A stretch of DNA of 39,340 nt from Lentibacter sp. (lineage in GTDB: Bacteria > Pseudomonadota > Alphaproteobacteria > Rhodobacterales > Rhodobacteraceae): assembly GCA_016744435.1 (NCBI GenBank), contig JADGEJ010000033.1:1-39340 (forward strand), written 5' to 3'. The notes under the pieces are model-generated. The model was not told the origin of the DNA. It ran no database searches and saw only the letters and a program-made list of their open reading frames with translations. Below are positions 6,969 to 37,799 of this stretch, piece after piece (the first letter of the stretch is position 1; every line of letters begins with the position of its first letter). The position numbers and the translations under genes were made by a program.

Positions 6969-7020
6969 GGGCCACGGCTTTGTTGACCATTTTCGCAGGC
7001 GTTAACCTTTTCGCTCAAGC

Positions 7021-7092
7021 CAAATCGTATGTACGCGTTATGCACAGATAGCTGCATACATAGCTGCATAGTGTAGGCACGGGTGTTTTGGC
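7021..7092 (-). repeat. Intergenic 72-bp dispersed repeat, copy A
   Basis: Read on the minus strand, this segment matches 21232-21303 at 61 of 72 positions without gaps. Conserved inside it are two TATGCAGC boxes 12 bp apart, TGTGCATA and CGCGTACATAC. TATGCA of either box can pair with TGCATA further on. It begins two bases after the mvaA stop codon, between two convergent genes. There is no ORF in it and no T-tract. Confidence 0.85.
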
Positions 7093-7094
7093 TG

Positions 7095-8351
7095 CTAACC
7101 TTTGGGTTCTGCGAGCAAAGCACGGGCCACATCTTCGCGCACCTCAAGCCGCTCGATCATCGCCTTCGCGACACGGTCAATGTCGGCCCCTTCAGCGCCC
7201 GCAACGAGGGCCACATTGCGCGCATGAAGCCCCATATGGCCGCGCTGGATACCCTCGGTTGCGAGCGCTCTGAGGGCCGAGAAATTCTGGATGAGGCCGA
7301 CTGAGGACACCACCCTTGCAAGCCTGTCAGCGCTTGTTACCCCCATGATTTTCAACGACTTTTGTGCAGTGGGGTGGGCCTTGGTTGCGCCGCCAACAAT
7401 GCCCACGGGCATCGGCATTTCGATCTCGCCCCAAAGGTCTCCCGCTTCTGTGATGCCATAGCGCGTCAGCGGACCATAGTTGCCCGCATGGCCCTTGGTC
7501 GCGGCATAGGCATGCGCCCCAGCCTCAAGCGCGCGTGTGTCGTTGCCCGTCGCCAGTGCGACCGCGCTAATGCCGTTCATGATCCCCTTGTTATGCGTCG
7601 CCGCGCGGTAAGGGTCATGCACTGAAAATTCATAAGCCGAAACAATGCCTTGCACTGTTTCCCCGCCGATCTCCGCTGCTGTCCAGACCGCCCTCGCGCG
7701 CACCAAACGGCGGTCAGCAAGGTTGCTCAAAATCCGCAATCCGACGCGGCCACCCGTCCATTCCGCCAGCTTGGGAGCAAGCGTTTCGGCCATAGTATTC
7801 ACCGCATTCGCCCCCATCGCATCGCGCACATCAACGATCAGATGCACCACCAGAAATGGCCCGGCAATGCGCACCTCAAGGTCGCGAAACCCGCCCCCGA
7901 GCTTTACCAGCATCGGATCACAAGCGTTGCAAATCTCTGATATTTCTCGCTTTTTCTCAGAAACGGCAGTCTGAGCAACTGGCAAGTCAGCAAGCCCGGT
8001 GATCTGAACCTGCGCGATCATGCAGGGATCATCTGCCTCAGTTGTGACGCCGCCCGTCGCCCGGCAGGCCCGCGCGCCGTTGCCAACAGCGGCGATGACA
8101 GAGCTTTCTTCCGTCGCCATCGGCACCAGCACATCAACGCCATCAACGATCAAATTGGTCGCAACCCCAAGCGGAATTGCCATCACCGAGATCACATTCT
8201 CGCTCAGATGATCCGCCAACTCCCCCGAAGCCGCCGCTTCAAAGTCTAGCTCAGCCGCGTCACGCTTGCTTATAAGTCCTTGATTTACAAGCTCTTGCAA
8301 CCGTTGGGCCCGCGATAATTTGTGAAACCCAGATATCCGTGACGACGCCAT
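7095..8351 (-). CDS. mvaA: Hydroxymethylglutaryl-CoA reductase, class II (degradative type)
   Basis: This cytosolic enzyme interconverts mevalonate plus CoA and HMG-CoA. The 418-residue soluble form, with no membrane anchor, and motifs MATEESSVIAA (Glu81), DAMGANAVNT (177-186), ATHNKGIMNG (Lys255), ATGNDTRALEAGAH (Asp271) and GHMGLHARN (His372) match class II enzymes such as that of Pseudomonas mevalonii, with all four catalytic residues present. An ATG four codons upstream is possible, but GGAGAG at ideal spacing favours the start used here. No mevalonate kinase or HMG-CoA synthase is nearby, and ispH later in the window indicates the MEP route, so mevalonate catabolism to HMG-CoA is the likely direction. 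prpE lies upstream on the same strand behind its own terminator. Confidence 0.94.
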   Translation of the reverse strand: MASSRISGFHKLSRAQRLQELVNQGLISKRDAAELDFEAAASGELADHLSENVISVMAIPLGVATNLIVDGVDVLVPMATEESSVIAAVGNGARACRATGGVTTEADDPCMIAQVQITGLADLPVAQTAVSEKKREISEICNACDPMLVKLGGGFRDLEVRIAGPFLVVHLIVDVRDAMGANAVNTMAETLAPKLAEWTGGRVGLRILSNLADRRLVRARAVWTAAEIGGETVQGIVSAYEFSVHDPYRAATHNKGIMNGISAVALATGNDTRALEAGAHAYAATKGHAGNYGPLTRYGITEAGDLWGEIEMPMPVGIVGGATKAHPTAQKSLKIMGVTSADRLARVVSSVGLIQNFSALRALATEGIQRGHMGLHARNVALVAGAEGADIDRVAKAMIERLEVREDVARALLAEPKG

Positions 8352-8401
8352 AAAGCTCTCCATGCCTAAACAAGAGCGATGTTAGCGCCGCACGCGGAAA
8401 T

Positions 8402-19319: not shown

Positions 19320-20152
19320 GACCCTTCCAAATGGCGGTCGATCACCGGCTTGAGAGAAAATGCAGCTTCCATATGTGCCGCGGGACCAAGCAATTGCAAC
19401 GTCGCCGACGCTTCAAATGGAGTGTAAACCATTCCCTCATTGCCACGAGCCAAGGCCGCTGCGCTTGCCTTCACAATAATGGTTTCCGCCACGCGGCTTT
19501 CAACCTGAGTCAGCATTTTTGCTGTTACGCCAAAGGGAGAGCTTGCCGAATGGTCAAAGCCAACCTTCTCGTCTGGTCCATGGTCCGCAAACCACATCAG
19601 GACCTTTGGCCCAGGCACCCTATCGAGCAGCAAGTTCATCCGCGCGACCCAGGCTTCCCGCAGTTCTTGCAAAAGCAGCATGAAACGGTCTGGATCTTTG
19701 TTCACCAAGCATCTCAACATGTGATTGGTAAAGTGAAACTCCGTAAAGTCGACATCCGGGAAAACCGAGAGCATACTTTGAGAGGCACCGAGAAACCTGT
19801 CATTGCGGCGTGGATGGACCGAGTAATAGCGATTTGATAGGTTGTGCACACCCATCACCTGTATCACCGTCAGGCGCGCCCTTGCCGCCAGATCAAGTGT
19901 GGCGAAATCGTTCAAAAACGAATCCACGCCAGCGTTGGGCACTCCAAGGTTCAGACATTGCACCTCGGCCATGTCTTCCAGAAGGTCTGGAAAGGGCCTC
20001 GCTACAAACTTTCCATAGGTTTCAGTGCTGCCCAAAAAGGCAACAAATGTTTCCCCAATTTCTTGCTTTGGTCCGCGAAACAAGAGCCGCGAAGTACCAT
20101 AACAACAGGGGTAGTAATCAAGGGGTCTCCCCCCTAGTTTTTCATAAGCCAT
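19316..20152 (-). CDS. DUF6473 family protein, unknown function
   Basis: The 278-residue protein resembles the DUF6473 family found mainly in Rhodobacteraceae. A SGNH/GDSL-like pattern can be seen: FLGSTETYGKFV near 40, with a serine where the nucleophile would be, then LNLGVPNAGVDSFLND and a later VLMWFADHGP. No signal peptide is present. Members are often near sulfotransferases or polysaccharide genes, but no such gene is here. The ATG follows GGTGGG; an upstream TTG is less likely. It overlaps the convergent hydrolase by four bases at the stops. Assignment is from memory of the family, so moderate. Confidence 0.7.
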   Translation of the reverse strand: MAYEKLGGRPLDYYPCCYGTSRLLFRGPKQEIGETFVAFLGSTETYGKFVARPFPDLLEDMAEVQCLNLGVPNAGVDSFLNDFATLDLAARARLTVIQVMGVHNLSNRYYSVHPRRNDRFLGASQSMLSVFPDVDFTEFHFTNHMLRCLVNKDPDRFMLLLQELREAWVARMNLLLDRVPGPKVLMWFADHGPDEKVGFDHSASSPFGVTAKMLTQVESRVAETIIVKASAAALARGNEGMVYTPFEASATLQLLGPAAHMEAAFSLKPVIDRHLEGS

Positions 20153-20311
20153 AAGTCCCACCAATTTTTTAGTTCACCCATCTTCACTATGCGAGTGAGA
20201 TATTTAGATTTCGCTAACACTTAAAAAGCGACCTACTAATAAGGCGCATAATGCCCCTTGCGGCCCTCCTCCGCAGGCGCTTATGCTGGCATTCAAAATG
20301 AGGAGCAGCAC

Positions 20312-21187
20312 ATGGACATCAAATCAGTTGGGGTGATCGGCGCGGGCCAGATGGGCAACGGAATCGCCCATGTAATGGCGCTGGCGGGCTATGATGTGAC
20401 CTTGAACGACCTGAACCCAGACGCGCTGGCAGAGGCTCTTGGGCGGATCGAAAAAAACATGGCGCGCCAAGTGGGCAAAGCCCAGATCACCGAAGCCGAA
20501 ATGGTCGCAGGATTAGGCCGGATCACATCCACGCTCGACATCGCCGCCGTTGGACAGGCAGATCTTGTTATCGAGTCAGCCACCGAAAATGAAGACATCA
20601 AAAACAAGATCATCGAAGGCCTCGTACCCCATCTTGCCGAGCAGTCGATCGTGACTTCAAACACCTCATCAATCTCGATAACCCGCCTCGCATCGCGCAC
20701 CGACAGACCCGAAAAATTCATGGGGTTCCACTTCATGAACCCCGTCCCGCTGATGCAACTCGTCGAGCTTATTCGCGGCATCGCGACCGACGAAGAAACT
20801 TACCTGAGCTGTCTGCAGGTTGTTGAAAAAATAGGAAAAACTGCTGCAAGCGCGGAAGACTTTCCCGGCTTTATCGTCAATCGGATTCTGGTCCCGATGA
20901 TCAATGAAGCCTGCTATACACTCTATGAAGGTGTCGGCAATGTCGCCTCTATCGACAACGCGATGAAGCTTGGTGCCAACCACCCGATGGGGCCTTTGCA
21001 ACTGGCCGATTTCATCGGCCTTGATACCTGTCTAGCGATCATGCATGTGCTGCACGACGGGCTTGCTGACACCAAATATCGCCCCTGCCCTTTGCTGTCC
21101 AAATACGTTGCAGCCGGTTGGCTTGGCCGTAAAGCGGGCCGCGGATTTTACGACTATCGCGGCGACGTTCCGGTGCCCACGCGCTAG
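20312..21187 (+). CDS. hbd: 3-hydroxybutyryl-CoA dehydrogenase
   Basis: Oxidises or reduces (S)-3-hydroxybutyryl-CoA/acetoacetyl-CoA with NAD(P). The 291 residues carry the Rossmann motif GVIGAGQMGNGIAH (7-20), VIESATENEDIK near 86, the SNTSSISITRLA serine region near 116, and the catalytic histidine in MGFHFMNPVP (H140). The C-terminal dimer domain has GANHPMGPLQLADFIGLDT. The start follows GAGGAG at good spacing, 18 codons inside the longest frame. It is a single-domain enzyme, as in butyrate, polyhydroxybutyrate-linked or ethylmalonyl-CoA metabolism. A copy of the 72-bp repeat lies 44 bp past its stop. Confidence 0.95.
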   Translation: MDIKSVGVIGAGQMGNGIAHVMALAGYDVTLNDLNPDALAEALGRIEKNMARQVGKAQITEAEMVAGLGRITSTLDIAAVGQADLVIESATENEDIKNKIIEGLVPHLAEQSIVTSNTSSISITRLASRTDRPEKFMGFHFMNPVPLMQLVELIRGIATDEETYLSCLQVVEKIGKTAASAEDFPGFIVNRILVPMINEACYTLYEGVGNVASIDNAMKLGANHPMGPLQLADFIGLDTCLAIMHVLHDGLADTKYRPCPLLSKYVAAGWLGRKAGRGFYDYRGDVPVPTR

Positions 21188-21231
21188 TAAACGCAAGGCA
21201 GCGTACGGTGGGGTTAACGCCCCGACGCCCC

Positions 21232-21303
21232 GCCAAAACGGCCGTGCCTACAATATGCAGCACTCTATGCAGCAATGTGTGCATACCGCGTACATACAGT
21301 TTG
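21232..21303 (+). repeat. Intergenic 72-bp dispersed repeat, copy B
   Basis: This copy matches the reverse complement of 7021-7092 at 61 of 72 positions without gaps. It is sense to the 3-hydroxybutyryl-CoA dehydrogenase gene upstream and faces the terminator of the convergent LysR gene. It holds the same TATGCAGC, TATGCAGC, TGTGCATA and CGCGTACATAC blocks. Confidence 0.85.
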
Positions 21304-21356
21304 CCGCCAATCCTTAACGCAAATTAACTTAATACAGCGTGCGTTGGTCATCCCTC

Positions 21357-21383
21357 AAAAAAAGACCCCGGAAAAATCCGGGG
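21357..21383 (-). terminator. Intrinsic terminator of the LysR gene
   Basis: On the minus strand CCCCGGA, TTTT, TCCGGGG form a 7-bp stem followed by TC and seven T residues. It lies about 30 bp past the stop codon of the LysR regulator gene. Confidence 0.9.
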
Positions 21384-21414
21384 CCAGTTCAGGGAGAAAA
21401 TCTGTTGGGACAGC

Positions 21415-22320
21415 TCACCAGTCTGATGGGCCTTTGTCACCAAACGAGTGCACCAAGAAGTCGATAAAGGCGCGCACTTTGGGTTGCGTGAAGCGCCCGG
21501 GCGGGTAAACCGCATAGATGCCTTGTGTCTCAACCGGAAGCTCGGGGATAGCGTCTTGCACGAGGCCCTTCTCCAGCGCATCCGCGTAGAGGAAGCTTGG
21601 CAGGTAAGCGATGCCGAGGCCAGAGATCGCGGCGTTCAAAAGCGACTGGCCGTCATTGACTGTCAGCCAACCCGCGGTGCGCACTTGGCGCTTCTCGCCA
21701 GATGGTGCCGTGATCTTCCAAACGTTGCCAGCCGAATTGTTTGAGTAATGCAACAGCTTGTGCTCATTCAGATCGTCGATCTTCTCAGGGCGGCCATAGC
21801 GCTGGAAGTAGCTCGGTGAAGCGATCATCCGCATGTTTGTTTCTGTCAGTTTGCGCGCTCTGAGCGTGCTGTCCTCAAGGTCTCCCATACGGATGGCCAT
21901 GTCAAAGCCCTCAGAGATGAGCTCAACATAACGGTTGTTGAGCACCATGTTGACGGTGATGTCAGGGAAATCCGTGAGGAACTCGCCGAGCACTGGCGAG
22001 AGGTGATTGACACCAAAGTCTGTCGCAACTGAAATCCGCAAGAGGCCTGAAGGATCAGACTGCATCGAGCTTACCAAAGCGTCGGCCTCTCCAGCATCGT
22101 TCAAGACGCGGCGGGCACGGTCGTAGTAGGCGAGGCCGATTTCAGTCGGGCTCACACGGCGCGTTGTGCGGTTGAGAAGCCGCGCACCAAGGCGGGCTTC
22201 AAGGGAAGAGACGTGCTTAGAAACGGCAGATTTTGAGATCCCCATTTTCTTGGCTGCGTCGGTAAACCCGCCTTGGTCAACGACCGTGGCAAAGGCTTCC
22301 ATTTCAGTTAGTCGGTCCAT
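21415..22320 (-). CDS. LysR-family transcriptional regulator
   Basis: A 301-residue LTTR. The N-terminal winged helix-turn-helix is clear (FATVVDQGGFTDAAKKMGISKSAVSKHVSSLEARLGARLLNRTTR split across residues 10-52). It is followed by the effector-binding periplasmic-protein-like domain (LRISVATDFGVNHLSPVLGEFL near 93). The sequence belongs to the broad LTTR subgroup close to DmlR/AaeR-like proteins, whose inducers vary. The start follows GAGGTGAT. Its target is unknown: it is convergent with the 3-hydroxybutyryl-CoA dehydrogenase, and smc lies upstream on the same strand, so there is no divergent partner to point to. Confidence 0.93.
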   Translation of the reverse strand: MDRLTEMEAFATVVDQGGFTDAAKKMGISKSAVSKHVSSLEARLGARLLNRTTRRVSPTEIGLAYYDRARRVLNDAGEADALVSSMQSDPSGLLRISVATDFGVNHLSPVLGEFLTDFPDITVNMVLNNRYVELISEGFDMAIRMGDLEDSTLRARKLTETNMRMIASPSYFQRYGRPEKIDDLNEHKLLHYSNNSAGNVWKITAPSGEKRQVRTAGWLTVNDGQSLLNAAISGLGIAYLPSFLYADALEKGLVQDAIPELPVETQGIYAVYPPGRFTQPKVRAFIDFLVHSFGDKGPSDW

Positions 22321-22489
22321 ACTCGATCACCTCAGAATTTCGTCTTGTTGAGGATGTGTATGGCGGCCAATGAAGGCGCAATCTGGGCAGTGGTGGGATA
22401 ATACTGGGGTATTGTCTCGCATCGTTCATGGCATGGAAACAGCGGAACAGTGGTTTCCGCGCGCAAGAAGTTTCAGTTTTCTGGGGGCC

Positions 22490-25400
22490 TTACGCCACCA
22501 TCGCTTCGGCTTTCTTAAGGTCAACACTCACGAGCTGGCTCACGCCCTGTTCTTGCATTGTTACTCCGAACAGCCTGTCCATCCGGCTCATGGTGACGGC
22601 GTGGTGCGTGATGATCAGAAAGCGGGTGTCGGTGCGGCGGCACATCTCGTCGAGCAAGTCACAGAACCGCGTCACGTTGGCGTCGTCGAGCGGCGCATCA
22701 ACTTCGTCGAGCACGCAGATCGGCGCGGGGTTGGCAAGGAAGACACCAAAGATAAGCGCCAGCGCCGTGAGCGTCTGCTCGCCGCCTGACAGCAGCGAAA
22801 GCGTCGCCAGTTTTTTGCCCGGAGGCTGACACATGATCTCAAGGCCGGCTTCCAGCGGGTCATCGCTTTCTACCAGTACAAGGTTGGCATCGCCGCCGCC
22901 AAACAGGTGTTTGAACAGCATCGAGAAGTTTGAGTTCACTTGCTCAAACGCCGTCAGAAGCCGCTCGCGGCCCTCGCGGTTGAGGCTGTTGATCCCGTTC
23001 CTCAACGTGCGGATCGCTTCTTCGAGGTCTTCCTTCTCGCCCTTAAGAGTGTCGTGCTCTTCGGCGACTTCCTTGGCGTCTTCCTCGGCGCGCAGGTTGA
23101 CAGCGCCCAGCGCGTCACGCTGACGCTTAAGGCGGTTAACGTCATTTTCGATCGCCTCGGAGGCGGGCATTTTCTCGGGGTCAGCCGCGAGGCTCTCAAG
23201 CAGCTTGTCTGGCGTTGTCTCTTGCACCTCTTCAATGCGCTCTGCGGCATAGGCGACAGTTTCGCGCGCGGCCTCTGTGCGGGCTTCGGCGCGGGCGCGG
23301 GCTTCGCGGGCTTCTGAGGCGGCGCGCTCTGCGTCGCGCTCTGCGTTGCTCGCCGTGCGCTCGCTGCCTTCAGCCTCTGAAAGGGCATCGGCGGCCTTTG
23401 CGCAACGCGCTTCGGCATCACTGATCGAATGGCCCAGTTCTGCGCGCTTCGCGGCAATCTCTTCGGGGGCTGCGGTGGCGTCCTTAAGCTCAACCTCAGA
23501 AGCCTCTTTGCGCTCGACCAGCTCGGCAATCCGCTTTTCGGCGGTTTCCAAGCGGTGGCGCCAGCCTGACATCTCTTTGGTGACTTCCTGGCTGCGGCGG
23601 GTGCGGGCCTCGCCTTCGCGGCGCAGCTCGTCGTGGGCTGAACGTTTGGACATCATCGTCATGCGCGCGGCTTCGACCGTCAGTTTGACGTCTTCAACTT
23701 CTGCGCGGGCTTCGGCCAAATCGCCCAAGCCGGCCAAGCCGCGCTCTGCCTCTTGCAAAGATTTGCGCGCAGTCATCGCCTCTTCTTCGTGGCGTTTCAC
23801 GGCGAGACCCAAGCTGTCGAGGCGCGACTCAGCCAGCGTTCTGTCAGCTTCGGCGCGGCTCAAAGCGCGGGCGGCATCGGCCACGGCACTGTCGGCGGCG
23901 CGGCGGGCTTCGCGGGCGTCTTTGTCGGCCTGAGCATCTGTCGCCAGTTGCTGGGTAAGCATCGCATGAGCACGGCGCGCGCCCTCTGCGCGGGCGCTGG
24001 CGCTTTCCATCTGTTGTTTGAGGGCCTCAAGGCGGTTGATCTGCTCAAGGCGCAACGCAGCCGCACTTGGCGCATCTTCCGCCCAAGCGCGCAACCCGTC
24101 CCAGCGCCACAAGTCGCCCTCAACGCTCACAAGCCGCTGACCGGGCTTAAGCTGTTCCTGCAAGGCGGGGGCTTCGTCCGCGTCAACCAGCCCGATCTGC
24201 GCCATGCGCCGCGCCAGAACAGCGGGCACATTGACGTGCTCGGAAAGCGGGCGCACGCCCGCCGGCAGCGGGTGCGGTTCCTTGTAAGACGGCAGGCTCG
24301 CCCAGCCAGAGGGGCCATCTTCGCTCACTTCCGGTGCGCGAAGATCATCGGCCAAAGCCGCACCGAGGGCTTTCTCAAACCCCGGCTCAACTTGCACGCG
24401 GTCAATGATCTGCCCGCCTTCGGCTGTGTCACGTTCAACCAAGCGAGCCAGTGCCGTGGCTTCAGCCGACAGCGCGTTGACTTCGCCTTCGGCTTCAGAC
24501 AGTTCGGCACGGGCCACCGCTTCGCGGCTTTGGGTCGCTGCGCGCGCTGCTTCAGCGGCGGTCAGCGCTTCCTCGGCGGCGACTGAAGCCTGATGCGCAC
24601 CCTTCTCGGCGGCTTGCGCTATCTCAAAGTCGCTCGCGGCTTTCGCCAAGGCGGCGCGTGACACTTCAACCGCGGCAAGGGCCTTTTCGGCCTCACCGCT
24701 TGAGCGGCTCTCGGTTTTGCGACTGTCTTCCAGCAGGCGCTGGGCTGATTGGTGACGCGCTGACAGGCGGGCCACATCTTCTGTAAGCTCACTGAGAGCA
24801 CTTTCGCGCTCTTGCAGGATTTCGGCAGATGACTGGCTGCTCTCGGCGGCGGCTGTCAGGCGCCCTTCGTGGCCTTCGCCGGCTTTCTTAAGCTCGTCAG
24901 CCTCCCACTCAAGCCGCGCGATGGTTTCTTCTGCATCGCGGTTCAGGCCAGCCTCGCGCTCCATGTCAGCACTCAGTTGGAGGATGCGGTTCTTGAGCGT
25001 CTCGATAGTGTGCAGGGCTGACTTCTCTTGGTCGTCCAGCGTGTCGCGTTGCACGGTCAGGCGCTGCAACACAGCAGTTGCGATAGCTTCTTCCTCTCGC
25101 AAAGCTGGCAAAGCATCTTCCGCAAGCTGGCGCTGCTTGGTCGCATCGCGCGCGGCCTTCTCTGCCTGAGCAGCCGTTGTCGTGCGTTCGCGCAATGTGT
25201 CTTGCTCGGCAGCATGGGCCTCGGCAGCTTCTTTCCAACGCCGATAAAGCAGCAGGCCCTCAGAGCGGCGCAACTCTTCGCCGATTTCGCGGTAGCGGGC
25301 CGCTTGGCGGGCTTGGCGCGCGAGCTGGGCAAGTTGAGTTGCGAGCTGTTCGATCACATCATCAACCCGCGACAGGTTTGTCTCGGCACCCTTGAGCTTG

Positions 25401-25945
25401 AGTTCGGCCTCATGGCGGCGTTGATAGAGCCCCGAGATCCCAGCCGCCTCTTCCAGAATGCGGCGGCGGTTCTTCGGCTTCGCGTTGATCAGCTCGGCGA
25501 TCCGCCCCTGCCCCACCAATGCTGGCGAATGCGCGCCGGTTGAGGCGTCAGCAAACAACATCTGCACGTCGCGCGCGCGGGTGTCTTTGCCATTGGCCTT
25601 ATAGGCGCTGCCCACATCACGGGTGATACGGCGCACGACCTCAAGATTGTCTTGGTCGTTAAAGCCAGCAGGTGCGAGGCGGTCTTGGTTGTCGATATGC
25701 AGCGAAACTTCGGCAAAGTTGCGCGCGGGTCGTGTGGCCGCGCCAGCAAAGATCACGTCTTCCATGCCGCCGCCGCGCATTGAGGTTGGGCGGTTTTCGC
25801 CCATAACCCAGCGCAGTGCTTCCAACAGGTTAGACTTGCCACAGCCGTTAGGGCCGACAACGCCAGACAGCCCGTGCTGAATGATCAGATCGGTCGGATC
25901 AACGAAGCTTTTGAAGCCCTGTAATCTGAGTTTGTGAAACTGCAC
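22490..25945 (-). CDS. smc: Chromosome segregation protein SMC
   Basis: A 1151-residue condensin ATPase that compacts and segregates origin-proximal DNA with ScpAB. Domains in order are the N-terminal ATPase half (LRLQGFKSFVDP; Walker A GPNGCGKSN at 31-39), a long coiled coil rich in Ala/Glu/Arg, the hinge in the middle (around 500-620: VQVEPGFEKALGAALADDL), the returning coiled coil, and the C-terminal half with signature LLSGGEQTLTALAL and Walker B ICVLDEVDAPLDDAN. The GTG start is preferred, since the FKSF motif should be about ten residues in, although no good Shine-Dalgarno is visible. A perfect DnaA box lies about 100 bp upstream. scpA and scpB are not in the window. Confidence 0.96.
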   Translation of the reverse strand: MQFHKLRLQGFKSFVDPTDLIIQHGLSGVVGPNGCGKSNLLEALRWVMGENRPTSMRGGGMEDVIFAGAATRPARNFAEVSLHIDNQDRLAPAGFNDQDNLEVVRRITRDVGSAYKANGKDTRARDVQMLFADASTGAHSPALVGQGRIAELINAKPKNRRRILEEAAGISGLYQRRHEAELKLKGAETNLSRVDDVIEQLATQLAQLARQARQAARYREIGEELRRSEGLLLYRRWKEAAEAHAAEQDTLRERTTTAAQAEKAARDATKQRQLAEDALPALREEEAIATAVLQRLTVQRDTLDDQEKSALHTIETLKNRILQLSADMEREAGLNRDAEETIARLEWEADELKKAGEGHEGRLTAAAESSQSSAEILQERESALSELTEDVARLSARHQSAQRLLEDSRKTESRSSGEAEKALAAVEVSRAALAKAASDFEIAQAAEKGAHQASVAAEEALTAAEAARAATQSREAVARAELSEAEGEVNALSAEATALARLVERDTAEGGQIIDRVQVEPGFEKALGAALADDLRAPEVSEDGPSGWASLPSYKEPHPLPAGVRPLSEHVNVPAVLARRMAQIGLVDADEAPALQEQLKPGQRLVSVEGDLWRWDGLRAWAEDAPSAAALRLEQINRLEALKQQMESASARAEGARRAHAMLTQQLATDAQADKDAREARRAADSAVADAARALSRAEADRTLAESRLDSLGLAVKRHEEEAMTARKSLQEAERGLAGLGDLAEARAEVEDVKLTVEAARMTMMSKRSAHDELRREGEARTRRSQEVTKEMSGWRHRLETAEKRIAELVERKEASEVELKDATAAPEEIAAKRAELGHSISDAEARCAKAADALSEAEGSERTASNAERDAERAASEAREARARAEARTEAARETVAYAAERIEEVQETTPDKLLESLAADPEKMPASEAIENDVNRLKRQRDALGAVNLRAEEDAKEVAEEHDTLKGEKEDLEEAIRTLRNGINSLNREGRERLLTAFEQVNSNFSMLFKHLFGGGDANLVLVESDDPLEAGLEIMCQPPGKKLATLSLLSGGEQTLTALALIFGVFLANPAPICVLDEVDAPLDDANVTRFCDLLDEMCRRTDTRFLIITHHAVTMSRMDRLFGVTMQEQGVSQLVSVDLKKAEAMVA

Positions 25946-26045
25946 TGTTTGCTTTGGCCAAATGATTCCGGATTCCGGCCAGTTTGGCGTCTGACTTGGC
26001 TGCCTGTCAACGCGCAGCACCCTTTATGTGGGGTTATCCGCCGAG

Positions 26046-26054
26046 TTATCCACA
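26046..26054 (+). promoter_or_regulatory. Perfect DnaA box upstream of smc
   Basis: TTATCCACA matches the strong DnaA consensus exactly. It sits in the 117-bp gap between the smc start and the end of the upstream glutathione transferase gene. It is a single box, so not an origin; it might tune smc transcription or be chance. Confidence 0.4.
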
Positions 26055-26062
26055 AGATATCG

Positions 26063-27028
26063 CTATATAGAGCGTAAATTACCCCGATTGTGCGGCGCAT
26101 CGAAGTCCAGAACAGGGTTCACTGGGGTGATGCGGTTTGGGTTAATGCCCTCGTGACTGTAGTGATAGTGCCGCACGATATGAGCAAAATTGGTCGTCTT
26201 GCTCACGCCTTCCACCTGATACAGTTCGCGGGTGTAGGCCCAGAGGTTGGGGTAATCAACGATGCGTTTGCGGTTACACTTGAAATGCAAATGATAGACC
26301 AGATCAAAGCGCACAAGGGTCGTGAACAGGCGCCAGTCGGCTTCTGTTAGGACGTCGCCCATCAGGTATCTGCTCGCGCCAAGCCGCGCTTCTAACCACT
26401 CCAGCGTGTCAAACAACGGCACGACAGCGGCGTCGTAAGCCTCTTGCGAAGTGGCAAACCCCGCTTTGTAGACGCCGTTGTTGAGCGTGTTATAAATGCG
26501 TGCATTCACCACATCTATGGCGTCGCGCTGAGCTTCTGGCCAAAAGTCGAGCCTGTTGCCTGTTAAGCCGTCGAACGCGGCGTTCATCATCCGGATGATC
26601 TCACTGCTTTCGTTTGAGACGATGGTCTCAAGCTCTTTGTCCCACAGAATTGGGACAGTGACGCGGCCAGACACCTGCGGATCAGCTTTGGTATAGATGT
26701 CGCGCGCAAATGGCAGGCCATAGAGTGTATCACCTGTCGCGCCCTCATCATCGCGCTCAAATGTCCAGCCATCCGAAAGCATATCAGGATGCACAACCGA
26801 GGTGCTGATATGCTCGGTAAGGCCTTTTAGCGCACGAAAGATCAGCACTCGGTGGGCCCATGGGCAGGCGTGCGAGACGTAAAGATGATAGCGGCCTGAA
26901 ACTGCGGGGAAGTCACCGTCAGGGGTGATCCAGCTTCGAAAGCCCGCGGTTGTGCGTTTGAAAGCCCCACCTGTTGATTTGGTATCATACCAGACATCTT
27001 CCCAAACACCGTTTACAAGCTGGCCCAT
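26063..27028 (-). CDS. Glutathione S-transferase, glutathionyl-hydroquinone reductase type (YqjG/ECM4)
   Basis: Glutathionyl-hydroquinone reductases (xi-class GSTs) remove glutathione from glutathionyl-hydroquinones. The protein has 321 residues, within family length. The thioredoxin-fold N-half has the diagnostic YVSHACPWAHR with active cysteine C55. The C-terminal helical domain has ANDVVNARIYNTLNNGVYKAGFA-like and LTEADWRLFTTLVRFDLVYHLHFKCN stretches typical of the class. The chosen ATG has GGAGAG four bases before it; an ATG inside that ribosome site and a long Cys-rich upstream extension are rejected. It stands alone, 117 bp upstream of smc. Confidence 0.9.
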   Translation of the reverse strand: MGQLVNGVWEDVWYDTKSTGGAFKRTTAGFRSWITPDGDFPAVSGRYHLYVSHACPWAHRVLIFRALKGLTEHISTSVVHPDMLSDGWTFERDDEGATGDTLYGLPFARDIYTKADPQVSGRVTVPILWDKELETIVSNESSEIIRMMNAAFDGLTGNRLDFWPEAQRDAIDVVNARIYNTLNNGVYKAGFATSQEAYDAAVVPLFDTLEWLEARLGASRYLMGDVLTEADWRLFTTLVRFDLVYHLHFKCNRKRIVDYPNLWAYTRELYQVEGVSKTTNFAHIVRHYHYSHEGINPNRITPVNPVLDFDAPHNRGNLRSI

Positions 27029-27251
27029 CGCGCTCTCCATTGCTGTATGCAAGCAACATAGACCGCTCAAGCACGCAAAAAAACTGCAGCACACGCGCAG
27101 GGCCGGTGCGCTACTGCACAAACCACCTTTCAAGGCGGCAGAGTCACGCAGTTGCAACAGGTGCATGTGCAGCATTCTGTTTTTCACGCATTGTCACTTG
27201 CTGTTCACATCTCATGTGTAATTTTGCCCCGATACCACTGGGAACATTGCC

Positions 27252-27617
27252 ATGACTGACTATCTTTCGCCTGAAATCGAAGCCGCCTTGAAGGCCGCGC
27301 GCAAACAAGCGATGCGCAAATCTAGCCGCTTGCGTGTGCATGTCGGCGACGAGAAATACCCGATCATGCGGCTGTGGGACGAAGGCTTTGCTCTTGATCT
27401 CGAAGATGCACCGCATCTGCGCGGCTTGGTTGACGTATACGACAGCGCCAAACACCTGATGCAGTGTTTGATCGTTGCCTCCGCTGAAGAGGCCGGAGAA
27501 GTGATCTATGAGTTCAAACGCGCGACAGTGGCCAACGACACTGCCCCGCTTGACTACGAGCGCGCCGTAAACGCGCCCGTGGCCTTGCTTGGCGCAGATG
27601 TTGCGCGCGCACGCTAG
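27252..27617 (+). CDS. Conserved-looking small protein, possibly PilZ-like
   Basis: A 121-residue soluble protein without signal peptide. The central part (RKSSRLRVHVGDEKYPIMRLWDEGF... split over 22-48, then GLVDVYDSAKHLMQCLIV and EVIYEFKRAT) has the beta-rich, Arg-containing look of PilZ c-di-GMP-binding domains, but a full RxxxR plus D/NxSxxG signature cannot be confirmed, so this is only a resemblance. GGGAAC precedes the ATG. It is divergent from the glutathione transferase gene and ends base-to-base against the convergent patB. Confidence 0.75.
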   Translation: MTDYLSPEIEAALKAARKQAMRKSSRLRVHVGDEKYPIMRLWDEGFALDLEDAPHLRGLVDVYDSAKHLMQCLIVASAEEAGEVIYEFKRATVANDTAPLDYERAVNAPVALLGADVARAR

Positions 27618-28787
27618 TTATTGCAGATCAGCAAAGGCTTTTTGCAACCGCGCAACTGCGTCTTCAACCACAGAGCGCGGTGTCGCGAGGTTAAAGCGCA
27701 TGAAGCTTTCGCCGCCCGTGCCAAACGTCGGGCCGTGGTTGGCGGCTATCTTGGCGTCTTTCTCAACCCGCTGGGTAAACTCTTCGCGGCTCATGCCTGT
27801 GCCCTCAAAGTCGACCCACGCGAGGTAGGTTGATTCTAGTGGCATTGATTGCAGACCCGGGATGCTGTTAACGCCCGCATCAAAAATCTCGCGATTGCCA
27901 TTGATATAAGCGACCATTTCGTCAACCCATTTGGCCCCCTCCGGAGAATAGGCGGCTTCGGCCATGAACAACCCGAAAGAGTTGGGCGACAGGCCGAGGC
28001 CCATCATCCGCTGGGCAAACTCGGCGCGCAGCTTTTCATTGGGGATGATCACATTGCCCGAGTGGCTGCCCGCTATGTTGAATGTCTTGGTTGTCGCCGT
28101 CATCATAACGAGACGGTCTTCAATATTGTCCAAAAGCGCCATGGCTGTGTGCTTCTGACCGGGCATCAAGATGTCATGGTGGATCTCGTCGGACACCAAG
28201 ATCAAACCATGTTTACGTGCAAATTCAGCGACTTGCTCAAGTTCCTCGCGGCTCCAGACACGCCCGCCCGGATTGTGAGGCGAGCAGAGCACGACCATCT
28301 TCTCGCTGCCATCAAGGATGCTGTCGTAGCTGCCAAAGTCCATCTCGTAGCGGCCATTGTTGAGAACCATCGGGCACTCGACAACGCGGCGGTTGTTGGC
28401 CTTAATCACCTTGGCAAAGGCATGGTAGACAGGGGTAAAGAGCACGACACCATCGCCCGGCTCTGTCCAGGTATCAACGCACATCGCGGTGCCATTCACC
28501 AAGCCATGGGTCGTGAAGATAGCGGCTGGGTCAACCTCCCAGCCGTGGCGCTCCTTCATCCACCAGCAGATCGCGGCGCGATAGCTGGTTTCGTCGGCGT
28601 AGTAGCCGTAAACACCGTGATCAAGCATGCCCTGCAGCGCATTTTGTACGCAAGCAGGCGGGCGAAAGTCCATGTCAGCGACCCACATCGCGATCCCCTC
28701 ATCGGCAGGCACGCCATAGAGCGTTTCCATCGCGTCCCACTTGGCAGAATGCGTTCCTTTGCGGTCGATGATCTCGTCGAAATTCAT
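27618..28787 (-). CDS. patB: PatB/MalY-type cystathionine beta-lyase (C-S lyase)
   Basis: A 389-residue fold-type I PLP enzyme that cleaves C-S bonds of cystathionine and related cysteine conjugates to pyruvate, ammonia and a thiol, in methionine synthesis or sulfur recycling. Signatures are MWVADMDFRPP (34-44), GVYGYY near 58, CSPHNPGGRVW (168-178), LVSDEIHHDI near 197 and the PLP lysine in TATTKTFNIAG (K234). The C-terminal FMRFNLATPR carries the carboxylate-binding arginine. GAGGGC precedes the chosen ATG, 41 codons inside the longest frame. Its stop abuts that of the convergent small gene. Confidence 0.92.
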   Translation of the reverse strand: MNFDEIIDRKGTHSAKWDAMETLYGVPADEGIAMWVADMDFRPPACVQNALQGMLDHGVYGYYADETSYRAAICWWMKERHGWEVDPAAIFTTHGLVNGTAMCVDTWTEPGDGVVLFTPVYHAFAKVIKANNRRVVECPMVLNNGRYEMDFGSYDSILDGSEKMVVLCSPHNPGGRVWSREELEQVAEFARKHGLILVSDEIHHDILMPGQKHTAMALLDNIEDRLVMMTATTKTFNIAGSHSGNVIIPNEKLRAEFAQRMMGLGLSPNSFGLFMAEAAYSPEGAKWVDEMVAYINGNREIFDAGVNSIPGLQSMPLESTYLAWVDFEGTGMSREEFTQRVEKDAKIAANHGPTFGTGGESFMRFNLATPRSVVEDAVARLQKAFADLQ

Positions 28788-28877
28788 GGCTTGGCCCTCT
28801 ATCTGATTTGGGCAAGACGCTACCGGAATGCGCGCCAAGCGCAAGGCCATGTTGCACCGCGCGCCAACCTGCCCTAA

Positions 28878-29405
28878 ATGAGCCTTATGAAACTGCCTAT
28901 TCTCATCCACCCCGACCCGCGGCTCAAAAAGAATTGCGCCCCTGTGCCTGACTTGTCAGACAGTCTACGCACGCTGGCCGATAACATGCTTGAAACCATG
29001 TATGACGCCCCCGGAATTGGCCTCGCAGCGCCCCAAATTGGCCAGCTCACAAGGCTTTTTGTGCTTGATTGCGTCAAGGAAGAGGGCGAAGCGGCCCGCC
29101 CGCTGATCATGTTCAACCCTGAGATCGTGGCGAGCTCTGACGAGACCAATGTCTATGAAGAAGGCTGCCTGTCGATCCCCGAGCAATACGCCGAAGTGAC
29201 CCGCCCCAAAGTGGTTGACGCGCGCTGGATTGACCGTGACGGAAACGAGCAAACCGAGACATTCGACGGCCTCTGGGCAACCTGTTTTCAGCACGAGCTT
29301 GATCACCTCAATGGCAAGCTGTTCATCGACCATATCGGAGCGATGCGCCGCCAGATGATCACCCGCCGGATGCAGAAACTCAAACGCGAGCAAGCCCGCG
29401 CATGA
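28878..29405 (+). CDS. def: Peptide deformylase
   Basis: Removes the N-formyl group from nascent proteins with an Fe(II) or Zn centre. The 175 residues hold all three active motifs: GIGLAAPQIG (46-55), EGCLS (metal ligand C97) and QHELDH (His139, catalytic Glu140, His143). The C-terminal basic helix (RRQMITRRMQKLKREQ) is normal for ribosome binding. The first ATG is used, but an ATG three codons later is equally possible because no clear Shine-Dalgarno is seen. It is the first of three overlapping genes def-def2-fmt, the removal and addition steps of the formyl-Met cycle. Confidence 0.95.
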   Translation: MSLMKLPILIHPDPRLKKNCAPVPDLSDSLRTLADNMLETMYDAPGIGLAAPQIGQLTRLFVLDCVKEEGEAARPLIMFNPEIVASSDETNVYEEGCLSIPEQYAEVTRPKVVDARWIDRDGNEQTETFDGLWATCFQHELDHLNGKLFIDHIGAMRRQMITRRMQKLKREQARA

Positions 29406-29893
29406 GCGTGCGGACCTGCATCCCGTGGCCCGACAAGCGGCTCCGCACGGCTGCCGCACCCGTGAGCGAAGTCACTGACGAGACACATAAAATCTGGGCT
29501 GATATGGTCGACACGATGGAGGCAATGCCCGGTGTTGGCCTTGCCGCTGTGCAGATCGGCGTGATGCAGCGCCTCGCCGTTGTCGACGCCTCCGACAACC
29601 GTGGCGAGGCCATCCTGATGGCCAACCCCGAGATCATCGACGCAAGCGCTATCCTGCGTGAACACCCCGAAGCCAGCCCCAACTTGCCCGGCTTTTCAGC
29701 GCGCCTCAAACGGCCCCGCGGCGTGAGCGTGCGGTTTCTCAACGCCGAGGGCGTGGTTGAGCAACGCGAGCTTATTGGCCTCTGGTCGACCTCAGTGCAG
29801 CACCAGATTGACCACCTCAATGGCAAGATGTTCTTTGACCATTTGAGCAAAGTGAAACGCGACATGCTGCTGCGCAAGGCGAGGAAATCCTGA
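29402..29893 (+). CDS. Peptide deformylase-like protein with degenerate active site
   Basis: A 163-residue paralogue of the preceding deformylase that keeps the fold but not the chemistry. Motif 1 is [10 protein letters not shown] (44-53). The EGCLS cysteine motif is replaced by EASPN (90-94), so the metal-binding Cys is absent. HExxH has become HQIDH (134-138), losing the catalytic glutamate while keeping both histidines. There is no frameshift and the gene overlaps def by four bases (ATGA) and fmt by one, so it is under selection as part of the operon. A pseudoenzyme role such as ribosome binding or regulation is an inference. It should not be counted as an active deformylase. Confidence 0.9.
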
Positions 29894-30801
29894 TGCGCGT
29901 TACCTTCATGGGCTCACCCGAATTTTCCGTTCCTGTGCTTGATGCTTTGGTTGCGGCTGGTCACGAGATCGCGGCGGTTTACTGCCAGCCGCCACGGCCT
30001 GCGGGGCGTGGCAAAAAAGACAGGCCAACTCCGGTGCATGCCCGCGCCTTGGAGCTCGGGCTTGAGGTGCGCCACCCCGTTTCGCTGAAGACGCCTGAAG
30101 CGCAAAAAGAGTTCGCAAGCTTTGCCCCAGAGGTTGCTGTCGTCGTCGCCTATGGGCTGATCCTACCGCAAGCCGTACTGGATACGCCTACGTATGGTTG
30201 CCTCAACATTCACGCGTCTTTGTTGCCGCGCTGGCGAGGGGCCGCGCCCATTCACCGCGCTATAATGGCAGGAGACACCGAGACAGGTATTTGCATCATG
30301 CAGATGGAAGCGGGCTTGGATACCGGGCCAGTTCTGTTGCGTGAAGCCACGCCGATTGGCGCGGAAGAAACCACCGCAGAACTGCATGACCGCCTGTCAG
30401 TGATTGGCGCGGACTCTATCACTAAGGCTTTGTCTAATATAGATAATCTTTCGCCAACAACCCAGCCGAGTGACGGTATAACCTACGCCTCAAAGATCAG
30501 TAAAGACGAAGCCCGCGTTGACTGGAATAAGCCCGCTGATGCGGTTGATCGCCAAATTCGCGGGCTGTCCCCCTTCCCTGGCGCGTGGTGCGAGCTTGAC
30601 GGCGCCCGCATCAAACTACTGGCTTCCAGATTGGCTGAGGGCAACGGCGAAGCTGGCGAAACCATCAGTACGGAGCCGTATGTTGCCTGTGCCAAAGGAG
30701 CGGTGCAGCTCCTCCGCTTGCAAAAAGCAGGCAGTCGCGCGCAAGGTGCCGAAGAGTTTTTGCGCGGCACGCCTATGCCAATTGGCACGCGGCTGACTTA
30801 A
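29893..30801 (+). CDS. fmt: Methionyl-tRNA formyltransferase
   Basis: Transfers a formyl group from 10-formyl-tetrahydrofolate to Met-tRNA(fMet) for translation initiation. The 302 residues show the N-terminal formyltransferase fold ([25 protein letters not shown] loop; catalytic Asn105/His107 in [25 protein letters not shown]) and the C-terminal tRNA-binding beta-barrel ([25 protein letters not shown]). Its ATG overlaps the stop of the deformylase-like gene as TGATG, so translation is coupled. Confidence 0.97.
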
Positions 30802-30849
30802 CAGCTATCGGCACAGGGGTTAGTTTCACGACCCATCGGAGGAAATAAC

Positions 30850-31083
30850 ATGGTTATCTGGCTCATCACCATCGGCGCAGCCGCCGGTTTTCTTGCAACC
30901 AAGATCATGAAGATCGAGGCTGATCTCATCACCACAATGGCGATAGGCATTGGTGGAGCCTTCGTTGGCGGTTTCGTTTTACGCTTTCTTATCAGTATGA
31001 TGGGAATGCTGGCAGGGCTTGTCGGCGCTGTGCTCGGAGCCATGCTGCTGATCTGGCTTTGGCAGACATATATCAAACGCTAG
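30850..31083 (+). CDS. Small membrane protein, GlsB/YeaQ/YmgE-like
   Basis: A 77-residue, very hydrophobic protein with about three membrane helices: residues 1-18, the glycine-rich TTMAIGIGGAFVGGFVLRFL, and MGMLAGLVGAVLGAMLLIWLW. The glycine-patterned helices and length resemble the transglycosylase-associated GlsB/YeaQ/YmgE family of stress-related inner-membrane proteins. The function is not established. GGAGGAAATAAC before the ATG is a strong ribosome site. It may be cotranscribed with fmt (48 bp gap). Its stop directly abuts the stop of the convergent TRIC gene. Confidence 0.82.
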   Translation: MVIWLITIGAAAGFLATKIMKIEADLITTMAIGIGGAFVGGFVLRFLISMMGMLAGLVGAVLGAMLLIWLWQTYIKR

Positions 31084-31707
31084 TCAGTTGCGCGGTGGGC
31101 GGGCCTTGTAAACCGGCAGGCGCCACCCGAAGGCGATCGAGCCTGCGCGCAGCACCACTGTGCTGAGCACACAACTGCCAAAAACCACCAAGGGCGCGCC
31201 CGAAAGCGTCGCTGCAAGCAGCGCCACAGCCGCGCCGCCAAAGGCAGCGGAGACATAGAGCTCACCCTGCCGCAGCACCATCGGAACCTCGTTGGCGACC
31301 ACATCGCGCATGAGGCCTCCGAAGGTGCCGGTGATGACCCCCATGATCAAGACAATCGGCGCGCCATAGCGCAGCTCCATCGCCACGCCAACGCCAGCCG
31401 CAACAGCGACGCCAAGCGCGAGCGCATCGAGCCACAAGAGCAGGCGTGCGCGACTTTCAAACAAATGCGCGGTAAAAAAGATCAACGCTGCAGCGCAGCA
31501 GGCAATGCCAATGTGCCCCGGGTTGGCGATCCAGAAAACCGGGTTTCTGTCGAGGAGCAAGTCGCGCAAAGTGCCGCCGCCGACGGCAGTGAGCGTAGCC
31601 AGAAAGGCAAATCCGATCAGGTCAAGTTGCGCACGGGAGGCGGCCAGCGCGCCGGTAAGAGCAAAGACAAAAACTGCTGCATAGTCGAGCAGCGCGAGCG
31701 TGCTCAT
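31084..31707 (-). CDS. TRIC/UPF0126 family cation channel protein (YadS-like)
   Basis: A 207-residue inner-membrane protein with two repeats of three hydrophobic helices, each ending in the family's glycine-rich motif: [20 protein letters not shown] near 41 and [19 protein letters not shown] near 127. This is the bacterial trimeric intracellular cation (TRIC) channel layout. The function in bacteria is poorly known; monovalent cation conduction is from homology. It is the last gene of the minus-strand operon ispH-methyltransferase-rnhA-TRIC, overlapping the rnhA stop by four bases. Confidence 0.9.
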
Positions 31708-32171
31708 CCTTCGCGCTTTTTGGGTTTGAACGGCTCCATTCCAGCGCGGGCCAATTCGTCAGCGCGCTCGTTTTCCGCGTGCCCCGCGTGGCCTTTGATC
31801 CACTTCCACGTGACGGTGTGGCGCTCTTGAGCGGCGTCAATACGTTGCCACAGATCCACGTTTTTGACAGGTTTCTTGGCGGCCGTCTTCCAGCCGTTGC
31901 GCTTCCAACCAAAAATCCAACCGGTGACACCGTTTTTCACATAGGCGCTATCGGTGACAACAGTTAGGTTTGATGGTTTCTCAAGTGTTTCCAAGGCGTT
32001 GATCGCCGCGAGAAGTTCCATTCGGTTGTTGGTCGTGTCGGCTTCACCGCCCTGCAAGCAGCGCTCTTTGAGCACTTTATTGCCCTCTTTGGCGAGCAGC
32101 AAAACGCCCCAGCCGCCTGGGCCCGGGTTGCCCGAGCAGGCACCGTCGGTGTAGGCGAAGAGTTCAGGCAT
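31704..32171 (-). CDS. rnhA: Ribonuclease HI
   Basis: Degrades the RNA strand of RNA-DNA hybrids such as R-loops and primers. The 155 residues match E. coli RNase HI in length. The acidic active site is visible: Asp9 in [17 protein letters not shown], Glu52 in NNRMELLAA, Asp74 in VVTDSAYV and the final Asp in [10 protein letters not shown], with the basic loop [17 protein letters not shown]. The start used is the internal ATG, since the longer frame's first 29 codons are non-conserved and lie within the upstream methyltransferase gene. It overlaps that gene by eight bases and the TRIC gene by four. Confidence 0.96.
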
Positions 32172-32754
32172 GTGAGCGCACCAAAATATAGGGTTCAAGT
32201 TTGCCCGAAAAGCCCCTGCCCTCGGCGTTGAGCGTGTTGTAGGGCCTAAAGCCTGCATCAGTCAGAAGTTGCATGAGTTCGCTTTCCGTAACGTAGGTGT
32301 ATTGCCGCCCGATGTTGTCGCGTGACGCGCCGTCGCCGAGCTTCATTCCGATGTGAAAGATGCCTGCGGGCTTCAGCGCAAGTTTGATGCTGGCCAAATG
32401 CGCGGGGAGGCTTTCGCGTGGGGCGTGGAGGAGTGAGAAATTTGCCCATACGCCATCGTATGCGCCCTCGGTATCAAGCTCGTCGAAAAAGGCCTGCCAT
32501 GCATTAACGCCTTGCTGTTGGCGCGCCAAAGCGACCATTTCGGCCGAGCCGTCAAAAGCGTCAACTGTGCACCCCTTAGCCGCCATCTGAACCGCGAAGT
32601 GGCCGGGGCCGCAGCCAAAATCGAGGACCTTAGCTGCATCAGGTAAGTCGGCAAGGAATCCATGCAAGCTGTCTTGATCGGATTTACCGATTTTCAAGTC
32701 AGCGTACTCTTTGGCTTTGGCGTCATAGACGGCCAGTGTTTCATCGTCGCTCAT
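32164..32754 (-). CDS. Class I SAM-dependent methyltransferase
   Basis: A 196-residue Rossmann-fold methyltransferase. Motif I is [19 protein letters not shown] near 44, followed by the acidic [15 protein letters not shown] and later [13 protein letters not shown]. The substrate cannot be inferred from the C-terminal half; it is of the Methyltransf_11/25 type. The ATG overlaps the ispH stop (ATGA), and its own end overlaps rnhA, so it is embedded in a tightly coupled operon. That does not identify the substrate. Confidence 0.9.
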
Positions 32755-33701: not shown

Positions 33702-33824
33702 GGCGCGCTCCTTAAGGCGTTCAGCAAAGCTGTTCTGCGATGAACCTCAGTTACAGGTCAAGGGCGAGGCGCCTCTTGGCCTTTGAGCTAAGCGATGCGC
33801 GCTCACAGGTCTAGGGCCAAGACG

Positions 33825-33862: not shown

Positions 33863-33874
33863 AAAGTCGCAAGC

Positions 33875-35164: not shown

Positions 35165-35178
35165 ACGCCTTTTTCGCC

Positions 35179-35207: not shown

Positions 35208-35239
35208 CCAGCCTTCACAAGACAGATCTGGAGTGTCCC

Positions 35240-37787: not shown

Positions 37788-37799
37788 GGCAGGCAACTC

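What the first reader, a model, noticed from the sequence alone, without database searches (positions are those of the whole stretch)
7021..7092. 72-bp dispersed intergenic element found twice, both times between convergent genes
The reverse complement of 7021-7092 and 21232-21303 agree at 61 of 72 positions with no gap, although the host genes differ. Conserved blocks are TATGCAGC twice at 12-bp spacing, TGTGCATA and CGCGTACATAC. The first TATGCA or the second can pair with TGCATA, so two alternative hairpins are possible and preserved in both copies. Each copy is sense to, and just past the stop of, a CoA-metabolism gene (mvaA, 2 bp; 3-hydroxybutyryl-CoA dehydrogenase, 44 bp) and faces a convergent gene. 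It is not a standard terminator (no T-tract), contains no ORF and is not a known IS end. It could be a 3'UTR RNA element or sRNA, a chromosome-architecture protein site, or a new repeat family of this lineage.
Basis: seen in the sequence. Interest (0 to 1): 0.75.

Follow-up and report, generated by a model that had tools for sequence, protein, structure and literature searches.

The report
Replication-oriented repeat along Rhodobacterales chromosomes
The small repeat is one of some sixty copies in this bacterium's genome that mostly point the way replication travels; related species keep many of the sites in place but carry a different central code, so they look like an undescribed kind of signpost for chromosome organisation.

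Summary
Observation confirmed: the two copies agree at 61 of 72 positions. The genome has 62 matches at E<1e-5. The 72 bp are the centre of a ~155-bp element: outer frames (GTTAAC; TTAACTTAAyGCAGCGTGCGGTG) around a core of about 3-5 tandem TGCA modules at 11-12 bp. Six of six congeners searched carry the frame with other core types; similar arrays recur in other Rhodobacterales genera. 48 of 66 own elements sit beside the same gene, same side and direction, in congener G004 (61 of its 75 distinct sites compared). Orthologous cores are no more alike than random cross-species cores, whereas orthologous frames are: in-place concerted evolution. Element-forward is the G-rich strand in 56/66 own, 56/61 G004 and 28/30 G001 loci. 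On G001's complete chromosome 45 of 52 sites fit a two-switch pattern; one switch brackets a dif-like site. Spacing is more even than random in G001 and G004. A hairpin RNA is not supported. Best reading: a replichore-polar protein-binding array for chromosome organisation or segregation; the factor is unknown and lagging-strand mobile origin is the main rival. Against: window copy 2 lies where skew is near zero, G328 shows no polarity (2 of 4), 18 of 66 own sites had no partner among those compared.

The parts
7027..7080 (-). Copy 1 core: 54 bp, GTGCCTAC + TATGCAGC x2 + TGTGCATA + GTACATAC at 11-12 bp spacing
6970..7130 (-). Copy 1 whole element including frames (extent approximate); its upstream frame overlaps the 3' end of mvaA (stop at 7095)
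   Evidence: extent of the own and G004 alignment; G004 carries an element at the same place after mvaA
7001..7006 (-). GTTAAC of the downstream frame of copy 1
   Evidence: GTTAAC 9.6 per kb within 70 bp of own elements against 0.095 in other intergenic DNA of the same loci
21244..21297 (+). Copy 2 core, 54 bp, same modules
21194..21354 (+). Copy 2 whole element with both frames
   Evidence: R2 hit 21196-21349
21198..21211 (+). Left outer frame motif GCAGCGTACGGTGG
21213..21218 (+). GTTAAC of the left frame
21322..21346 (+). Right frame AATTAACTTAATACAGCGTGCGTTG; it differs by one base from the consensus motif, whose 11 occurrences in this genome all lie at elements
   Evidence: places compared
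7095..8363 (-). Neighbour: HMG-CoA reductase gene (mvaA)
   Evidence: PF00368
5709..6968 (+). Convergent neighbour: DUF4147/MOFRL protein
20312..21187 (+). Neighbour: 3-hydroxyacyl-CoA dehydrogenase gene
21415..22302 (-). Convergent neighbour: LysR-family regulator

Best explanation
A dispersed, directional chromosomal site. Each ~155-bp element has a conserved frame around a core of about 3-5 tandem TGCA-containing modules at 11-12 bp, roughly one DNA turn, as expected for side-by-side binding of a multimeric DNA-binding protein. The sites lie on average every 45-63 kb, often just beyond gene 3' ends, and mostly point along the leading strand from origin to terminus. Shown by computation: copy number, frame and module anatomy, orthologous positions, lineage-specific homogeneous cores, replichore polarity (own, G004, G001 and others), even spacing (tested in G001 and G004 only). 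Inferred: that a protein binds the modules, that its specificity changes between lineages and the cores follow, and that the direction is read by a process running along the replichore (segregation, loop extrusion, a translocase or the fork). I think a chromosome-organisation or segregation role most likely.
For: Polarity: on the complete chromosome of G001 45 of 52 sites fit a two-switch pattern (1 of 20,000 permutations reached it); one switch (1,387,038 + to 1,530,318 -) brackets a dif-like site at 1,467,986, the other (2.94-3.02 Mb) coincides with the GC-skew flip in 31 sampled loci. In G004 contig C7 sites are 4 +, 1 - before the dif-like site and 4 +, 8 - after it. Element-forward strand is G-rich in 56/66 own (P=3e-9), 56/61 distinct G004 and 28/30 G001 loci, also in convergent pairs (27/29 own, 12/12 G001). 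In four other genera the TGTGCATC reading is always on the C-rich strand (0/10, 0/10, 0/6, 0/5) and in G136 always on the G-rich one (5/5). Even spacing: gap CV 0.67 against 0.97 random in G001 (P=0.0009) and 0.67 against 0.94 in G004 (P=0.0012). Position: 48 of 66 own elements have a G004 partner, all 48 same side and orientation. Concerted cores: orthologous core identity 0.809, cross-species non-orthologous 0.803, within species 0.84-0.85; left frame orthologous 0.732 against 0.62-0.65.
Against: No binding protein is identified and no experiment was available. Window copy 2 points opposite to copy 1, 14 kb away, where GC skew is near zero. 7 of 52 G001 sites and 10 of 66 own loci are discordant. 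G328 gave 2 of 4, no polarity. The dif consensus is recalled; at 3 mismatches the backward control also had one match in G001, though the four dif-like sites are nearly identical across genomes. The skew loci are themselves mostly element sites, and only 2 lie beyond 3.0 Mb. dnaA in G001 (position 1,096) is 260-340 kb from the inferred origin; with dnaA as origin 42 of 52 fit. 18 of 66 own elements had no partner among the 61 distinct G004 sites compared (one of them, at mvaA, does have one outside that set). Patchiness across genera is odd for a core chromosome function, though the searches are insensitive to changed cores.
Confidence: 0.45

Rival explanations
1. A non-autonomous mobile element that enters single-stranded DNA of the lagging-strand template (as IS200/IS605 or REP/RAYT-type systems are recalled to do); orientation would then reflect insertion chemistry, and cores spread by copying or gene conversion.
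For: Dispersed, intergenic, patchy between genera; polarity fits lagging-strand insertion; cores homogenise inside genomes; a truncated Y1 transposase fragment exists in the own genome.
Against: Only a 45-of-121-residue Y1_Tnp fragment was found in the own genome (relatives not searched); most own positions are shared with G004, and 15 of 66 own elements have a partner among 30 G001 loci, 12 in the same orientation; spacing more even than random in G001 and G004; old frames with changed cores in place; no match on plasmids or phages with one own-type query each.
Confidence: 0.22
2. A polar replication-fork pause or arrest site (Tus/Ter-like logic, different protein): permissive to forks from the origin, blocking forks travelling the wrong way.
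For: Replichore polarity with a switch around the dif-like site.
Against: Sites are spread over the whole G001 chromosome, not concentrated around the terminus: 7 within 300 kb of the dif-like site against 9.5 expected. The multi-module 155-bp anatomy differs from the recalled 23-bp Ter.
Confidence: 0.15
3. Recombination or repair signal on the leading strand (Chi-like), or a seed for gene conversion.
For: Leading-strand orientation; sequence homogenisation among copies.
Against: Much rarer (one per ~50 kb) and longer than Chi (recalled); fixed orthologous positions.
Confidence: 0.08
4. 3'UTR RNA element, sRNA or bidirectional terminator using TATGCA/TGCATA hairpins.
For: Mostly away from divergent promoters (29 convergent against 5 divergent in own, P=4e-5); AAAAC...GTTTTG ends; one-sided changes in the core mostly keep G-U pairs (22 cells against 2 broken); arrays in other genera lie in one orientation in tandem pairs (20 against 3).
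Against: 0 of 12 pairs with a compensatory change, and all 500 shuffles score at least as high; no strand bias in tandem pairs of own, G004 or G001; arms absent from other cores; no Rfam family at the core.
Confidence: 0.05

Closest known systems
AIMS / KOPS (FtsK-orienting polar sequences)
   Same: Leading-strand orientation; here the strand also switches around a dif-like site.
   Different: AIMS are octamers whose abundance and strand bias rise towards the terminus (PMC5993296, abstract and passages); here 52-77 long multi-part sites per genome, evenly spaced, not enriched near the dif-like site of G001.
REP/BIME, ERIC, BOX and MITE repeats; Caulobacter intergenic repeats (recalled)
   Same: Short dispersed intergenic repeats, often beyond gene 3' ends; BOX is recalled to have a variable number of inner modules.
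   Different: Replichore polarity, even spacing, frames kept in place while cores are replaced; no intact RAYT found in the own genome; tandem modules rather than one palindrome.
Tus-Ter fork traps (recalled)
   Same: Polar relative to replication.
   Different: Chromosome-wide and modular; no Tus search was made.
Noc, SlmA or MatP binding sites (recalled)
   Same: Tens of dispersed chromosomal binding sites.
   Different: I know of no replichore polarity for those; MatP sites are terminus-only.

Membership tests
AIMS/KOPS | More abundant on the leading strand | tested here: met
AIMS/KOPS | Abundance rises towards the terminus | tested here: not met
   G001 only: 7 sites within 300 kb of the dif-like site against 9.5 expected, 12 within 300 kb of the inferred origin
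AIMS/KOPS | Short (octamer) sequence | tested here: not met
   ~155-bp element
REP/RAYT | Cognate Y1 tyrosine transposase in the genome | tested here: not met
   own genome only (99% complete draft): a 45-residue fragment of PF01797
REP/RAYT | Conserved palindromic hairpin | tested here: not met
   cores of relatives are direct repeats
MITE | Terminal inverted repeats and target-site duplication | tested here: inconclusive
   inner ends AAAAC/GTTTT are inverted, outer GCAGCGTGCGGTG motifs are direct repeats common to many sites; no clean empty site examined
Tus-Ter | Polar fork arrest by a bound protein | not testable with these tools
   needs experiment
Known RNA family | Match to an Rfam model | tested here: not met
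   window, gathering; five loci, E<=0.5: one sub-threshold hit beside, not in, a core
Caulobacter-type repeats associated with CcrM sites (recalled) | GANTC enrichment | tested here: inconclusive
   G004 2.41 per kb against 0.80 background, own 0.70 against 0.82

The most novel reading that the evidence does not exclude
A bacterial counterpart of directional loop anchors: evenly spaced, replichore-oriented nucleoprotein arrays that tell a moving machine (SMC, a translocase or the fork) which way along the arm it is going, bound by a fast-changing factor, so that lineages rewrite the code at dozens of sites that stay in place.
Probability: 0.3. Interest if true: 0.95.

Novelty: categorically new. 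Interest (0 to 1): 0.86.

Why it matters
Long, evenly spaced sites that read the replication direction across whole chromosomes, stay at orthologous positions and yet change their recognition core between lineages fit no class of repeat or architecture signal that I know or found in the nine paper searches made. They would make two questions testable: how bacteria mark direction along a chromosome arm, and how dozens of dispersed sites change in concert in place.

Tried and rejected
RNA hairpin: folds of 30 single copies showed no common structure by eye, RNAalifold on 27 of them (three copies with another module number left out) gave 12 pairs without compensatory change, and the pair count is no better than its shuffles. 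CoA-gene regulation: neighbours are mixed. MITE/REP: no intact transposase in the own genome. Single longer duplication: rejected. CcrM-site repeat: GANTC enriched in G004 only. Plasmid or phage cargo: no match for one own-type query.

Sensitivity warnings. R1 on 60 genomes (4 with a match) and R2 on 120 family genomes (3 with a match) ran with stricter filters; R2 on the six congeners alone found 15-77 matches in each, where R1 had found them in G004 only. So 'no match' is not absence. In one search the backward control matched 16 of 394 genomes with 1-4 each, so only own, G262, G136, G330, G381, G328 and G062 stand clear of it. Three of 15 own-G001 pairs differ in gene orientation; I did not read them as flips, and the L048 case is a different site.

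Rows dropped: of 68 own matches, C25:33680 (E=0.07, inside a gene) and C48:3686 (E=0.7, abutting another copy) were left out, giving 66. G004 has 77 matches, 75 distinct sites; 62 entries were compared, 61 distinct (L066 and L323 are one site), and 48 own elements share 47 distinct partners. The mvaA pair (L036-L114) was seen apart and is not in the 48. The G004 spacing test used 74 of the 77 (the one C11 site, one overlapping and one partial match left out). The output that no G004 core has TRTGCAGC is wrong for L061 and L069. Identities use free end gaps and are inflated; only their order is used. Genes come from my own codon-score script, not a standard gene finder. The sign tests treat loci as independent.

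Full report
1. Check. The reverse complement of 7021-7092 and 21232-21303 agree at 61 of 72 positions without gaps, E=8e-17 in a search of the whole genome. Both copies lie between convergent genes, 2 bp past mvaA and 44 bp past a 3-hydroxyacyl-CoA dehydrogenase gene. A sequence model of the core (R1, 27 copies) finds 68 matches at E<=1 in this 3.25-Mb, 68-contig genome, 62 of them at E<1e-5. I used 66.

2. Anatomy. Conservation mostly extends about 50 bp beyond the 54-bp core on each side. The core is GTGCCTAC, TATGCAGC, TATGCAGC, TGTGCATA, GTrCATAC at 11-12-bp steps. Some copies lack or gain one ~12-bp module. A second module set, TGCATACCGCAG, occurs in a minority of own copies and in mixed copies. 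The frames are GCAGCGTGCGGTG-GGTTAACG on the left and GTTAACG-AATTAACTTAAyGCAGCGTGCGGTG on the right (consensus over 45 own and G004 copies, many incomplete). GTTAAC is 9.6 per kb within 70 bp of own elements, 0.095 per kb in other intergenic DNA and 0.18 in coding DNA of the same loci. All 11 own-genome occurrences of the right-frame pattern are at elements.

3. Relatives. At the 3' end of mvaA, G004 has an element at the same place and in the same orientation with another core; in G001, G002, G003 and G006 I saw none there, and G005 gave no mvaA match. A full-length model (R2) gives 77 matches in G004 and 15-34 in each of G001, G002, G003, G005, G006. The 24 loci of these five read have the same frame and similar length but other cores: GGGGGGTGA plus GTGCAC modules at 11 bp, shared by G001-G003 and G005, and TAGTGCACCCCC-like modules at 12 bp in G006. 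In other genera a three-module pattern occurs 36 times in G262, 16 in G136, 15 in G330, 12 in G381, 10 in G328 and 9 in G062; 33 of 394 genomes had any match, the rest of them 1-4, while the backward control matched 16 genomes with 1-4 each, so low counts mean little. Harenicola, Halocynthiibacter and Marivivens are Rhodobacterales. The outer frame CCACCGTACGCTGC-TTAAC is also seen in 2 of 10 G330 loci, and frame-only hits in G100 and G015 show further cores. TGCA arrays lie just upstream of a dihydrolipoamide dehydrogenase-like gene in G134, G373 and G328 (read from sequence; G134 and G373 have only 2 and 3 pattern matches).

4. Position and concerted change. Comparing neighbouring proteins, 48 of 66 own elements have an element beside the orthologous gene in G004 (61 distinct of 75 sites compared), all 48 on the same side and in the same orientation; 16 match on both sides. 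15 of 66 have a partner among 30 of the 52 G001 loci, 12 in the same orientation. Core identity: orthologous own-G004 0.809, non-orthologous own-G004 0.803, within own 0.841, within G004 0.847. Left frame: orthologous 0.732, within species 0.62-0.63, cross-species non-orthologous 0.65. Right frame: 0.771 against 0.72-0.74. The own module TRTGCAGC is in 57 of 66 own elements; among the 62 G004 entries only L061 and L069 have it. So frames were inherited in place and cores were replaced lineage by lineage.

5. Polarity and spacing. A model of the G001 type (R3) finds 52 sites at E<=0.01 on the complete 3,281,784-bp chromosome of G001. 45 of 52 fit a two-switch pattern: plus from 3.02 Mb through zero to 1.39 Mb, minus from 1.53 to 2.94 Mb; 1 of 20,000 label permutations reached this and none exceeded it. 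GC skew in 31 sampled loci (mostly element sites themselves) flips in the same intervals, in genes of either direction. A dif-like site (consensus recalled; 2 mismatches; the backward control also had one match in G001) lies at 1,467,986, inside the first interval. In G004 it lies at C7:356,481, with sites 4 +, 1 - before and 4 +, 8 - after. The dif-like sequences of G001, G004, G381 and the own genome are nearly identical. With the dif-like site fixed, 42, 43 or 45 of 52 fit when the origin is put at dnaA, opposite dif, or at the skew flip. Locus by locus, the element-forward strand is G-rich in 56 of 66 own, 56 of 61 G004, 28 of 30 G001, and 5/5 G002, 4/4 G003, 4/5 G005, 5/5 G006. Read by the TGCA pattern it is the G-rich strand in 5/5 G136 and the C-rich strand in G262 (10 of 10), G330 (10 of 10), G381 (6 of 6) and G062 (5 of 5), but 2 of 4 in G328. 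The frame runs with the pattern in G136 and against it in G330, which would reconcile the two signs; the frame was not traced in G381 and G062. Gap CV is 0.67 in G001 and in G004 against 0.97 and 0.94 for random sites (P=0.0009 and 0.0012); mean gaps are 63 and 45 kb. Spacing was not tested in the own draft. In the window copy 1 is concordant, while copy 2 lies where skew fades to zero.

6. Context. Own: 29 convergent, 12 tandem sense, 16 tandem antisense, 5 divergent, 4 undetermined; G004: 32, 10, 10, 9; G001: 12, 6, 7, 2 and 3 undetermined of 30. Convergent against divergent in own P=4e-5. In six other genera (40 loci) 20 tandem arrays were sense and 3 antisense by the TGCA pattern, with 11 convergent, 5 divergent and 1 undetermined, a point that an RNA reading could use.

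7. Mechanism. Shown: anatomy, polarity, spacing in two genomes, in-place concerted change. Inferred: a protein reads the modules and something reads the direction. Modules about one helical turn apart suggest side-by-side binding. Conserved positions and even spacing argue for selection, and polarity for a replication-linked or segregation-linked process. A lagging-strand mobile origin could explain polarity but not easily even spacing or in-place core change.

8. Comparison. AIMS are octamers that rise towards the terminus (PMC5993296, abstract and passages seen); these sites do not in G001. PMC7901474 (passages seen) mentions KOPS and dif in Dinoroseobacter; the passages show no such element. 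Paper searches (otherwise listings only) showed no description; most subscription papers are not in that library. Caulobacter intergenic repeats, IS200/IS605 strand bias, Ter, Chi, BOX, Noc, SlmA and MatP are recalled.

9. Verdict. Real, widespread, strongly non-random; function inferred, factor unknown.

Noticed in passing
window 21350-21420, minus strand (L048:1618-1688): Sub-threshold Rfam match to suhB/mmgR sRNA (34.2 bits, gathering 41, E=7e-4) next to copy 2, at the 3' end of the LysR gene.
   Followed up: no
L042, L046, L049, L055, L081, L100, L101, L102 at about +110 to +260 from the core; also L034 at +905: A second ~130-bp repeat family with hairpin GCGCCTTGGCTTCGCCAAGTCGC follows some elements.
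   Followed up: partly
window 20000-39340: GC skew rises from -0.11 at the left to about +0.02 at the right end, so a replichore switch or an inversion border may lie near.
   Followed up: partly
L117 (G000:C65:20735-20866): Truncated IS200-like Y1 transposase fragment, 45 of 121 residues.
   Followed up: no
L173 (G134), L151 (G373), L210 (G328): TGCA arrays directly upstream of a dihydrolipoamide dehydrogenase-like gene in three genera (read from sequence).
   Followed up: partly
G004 elements, e.g. L070, L071, L075: GANTC sites enriched at G004 elements (2.41 against 0.80 per kb) but not at own ones.
   Followed up: partly
L106 (own) and L065 (G004): An element between an apparent intrinsic terminator and the start of the next gene, conserved with the same module type in both species.
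   Followed up: no
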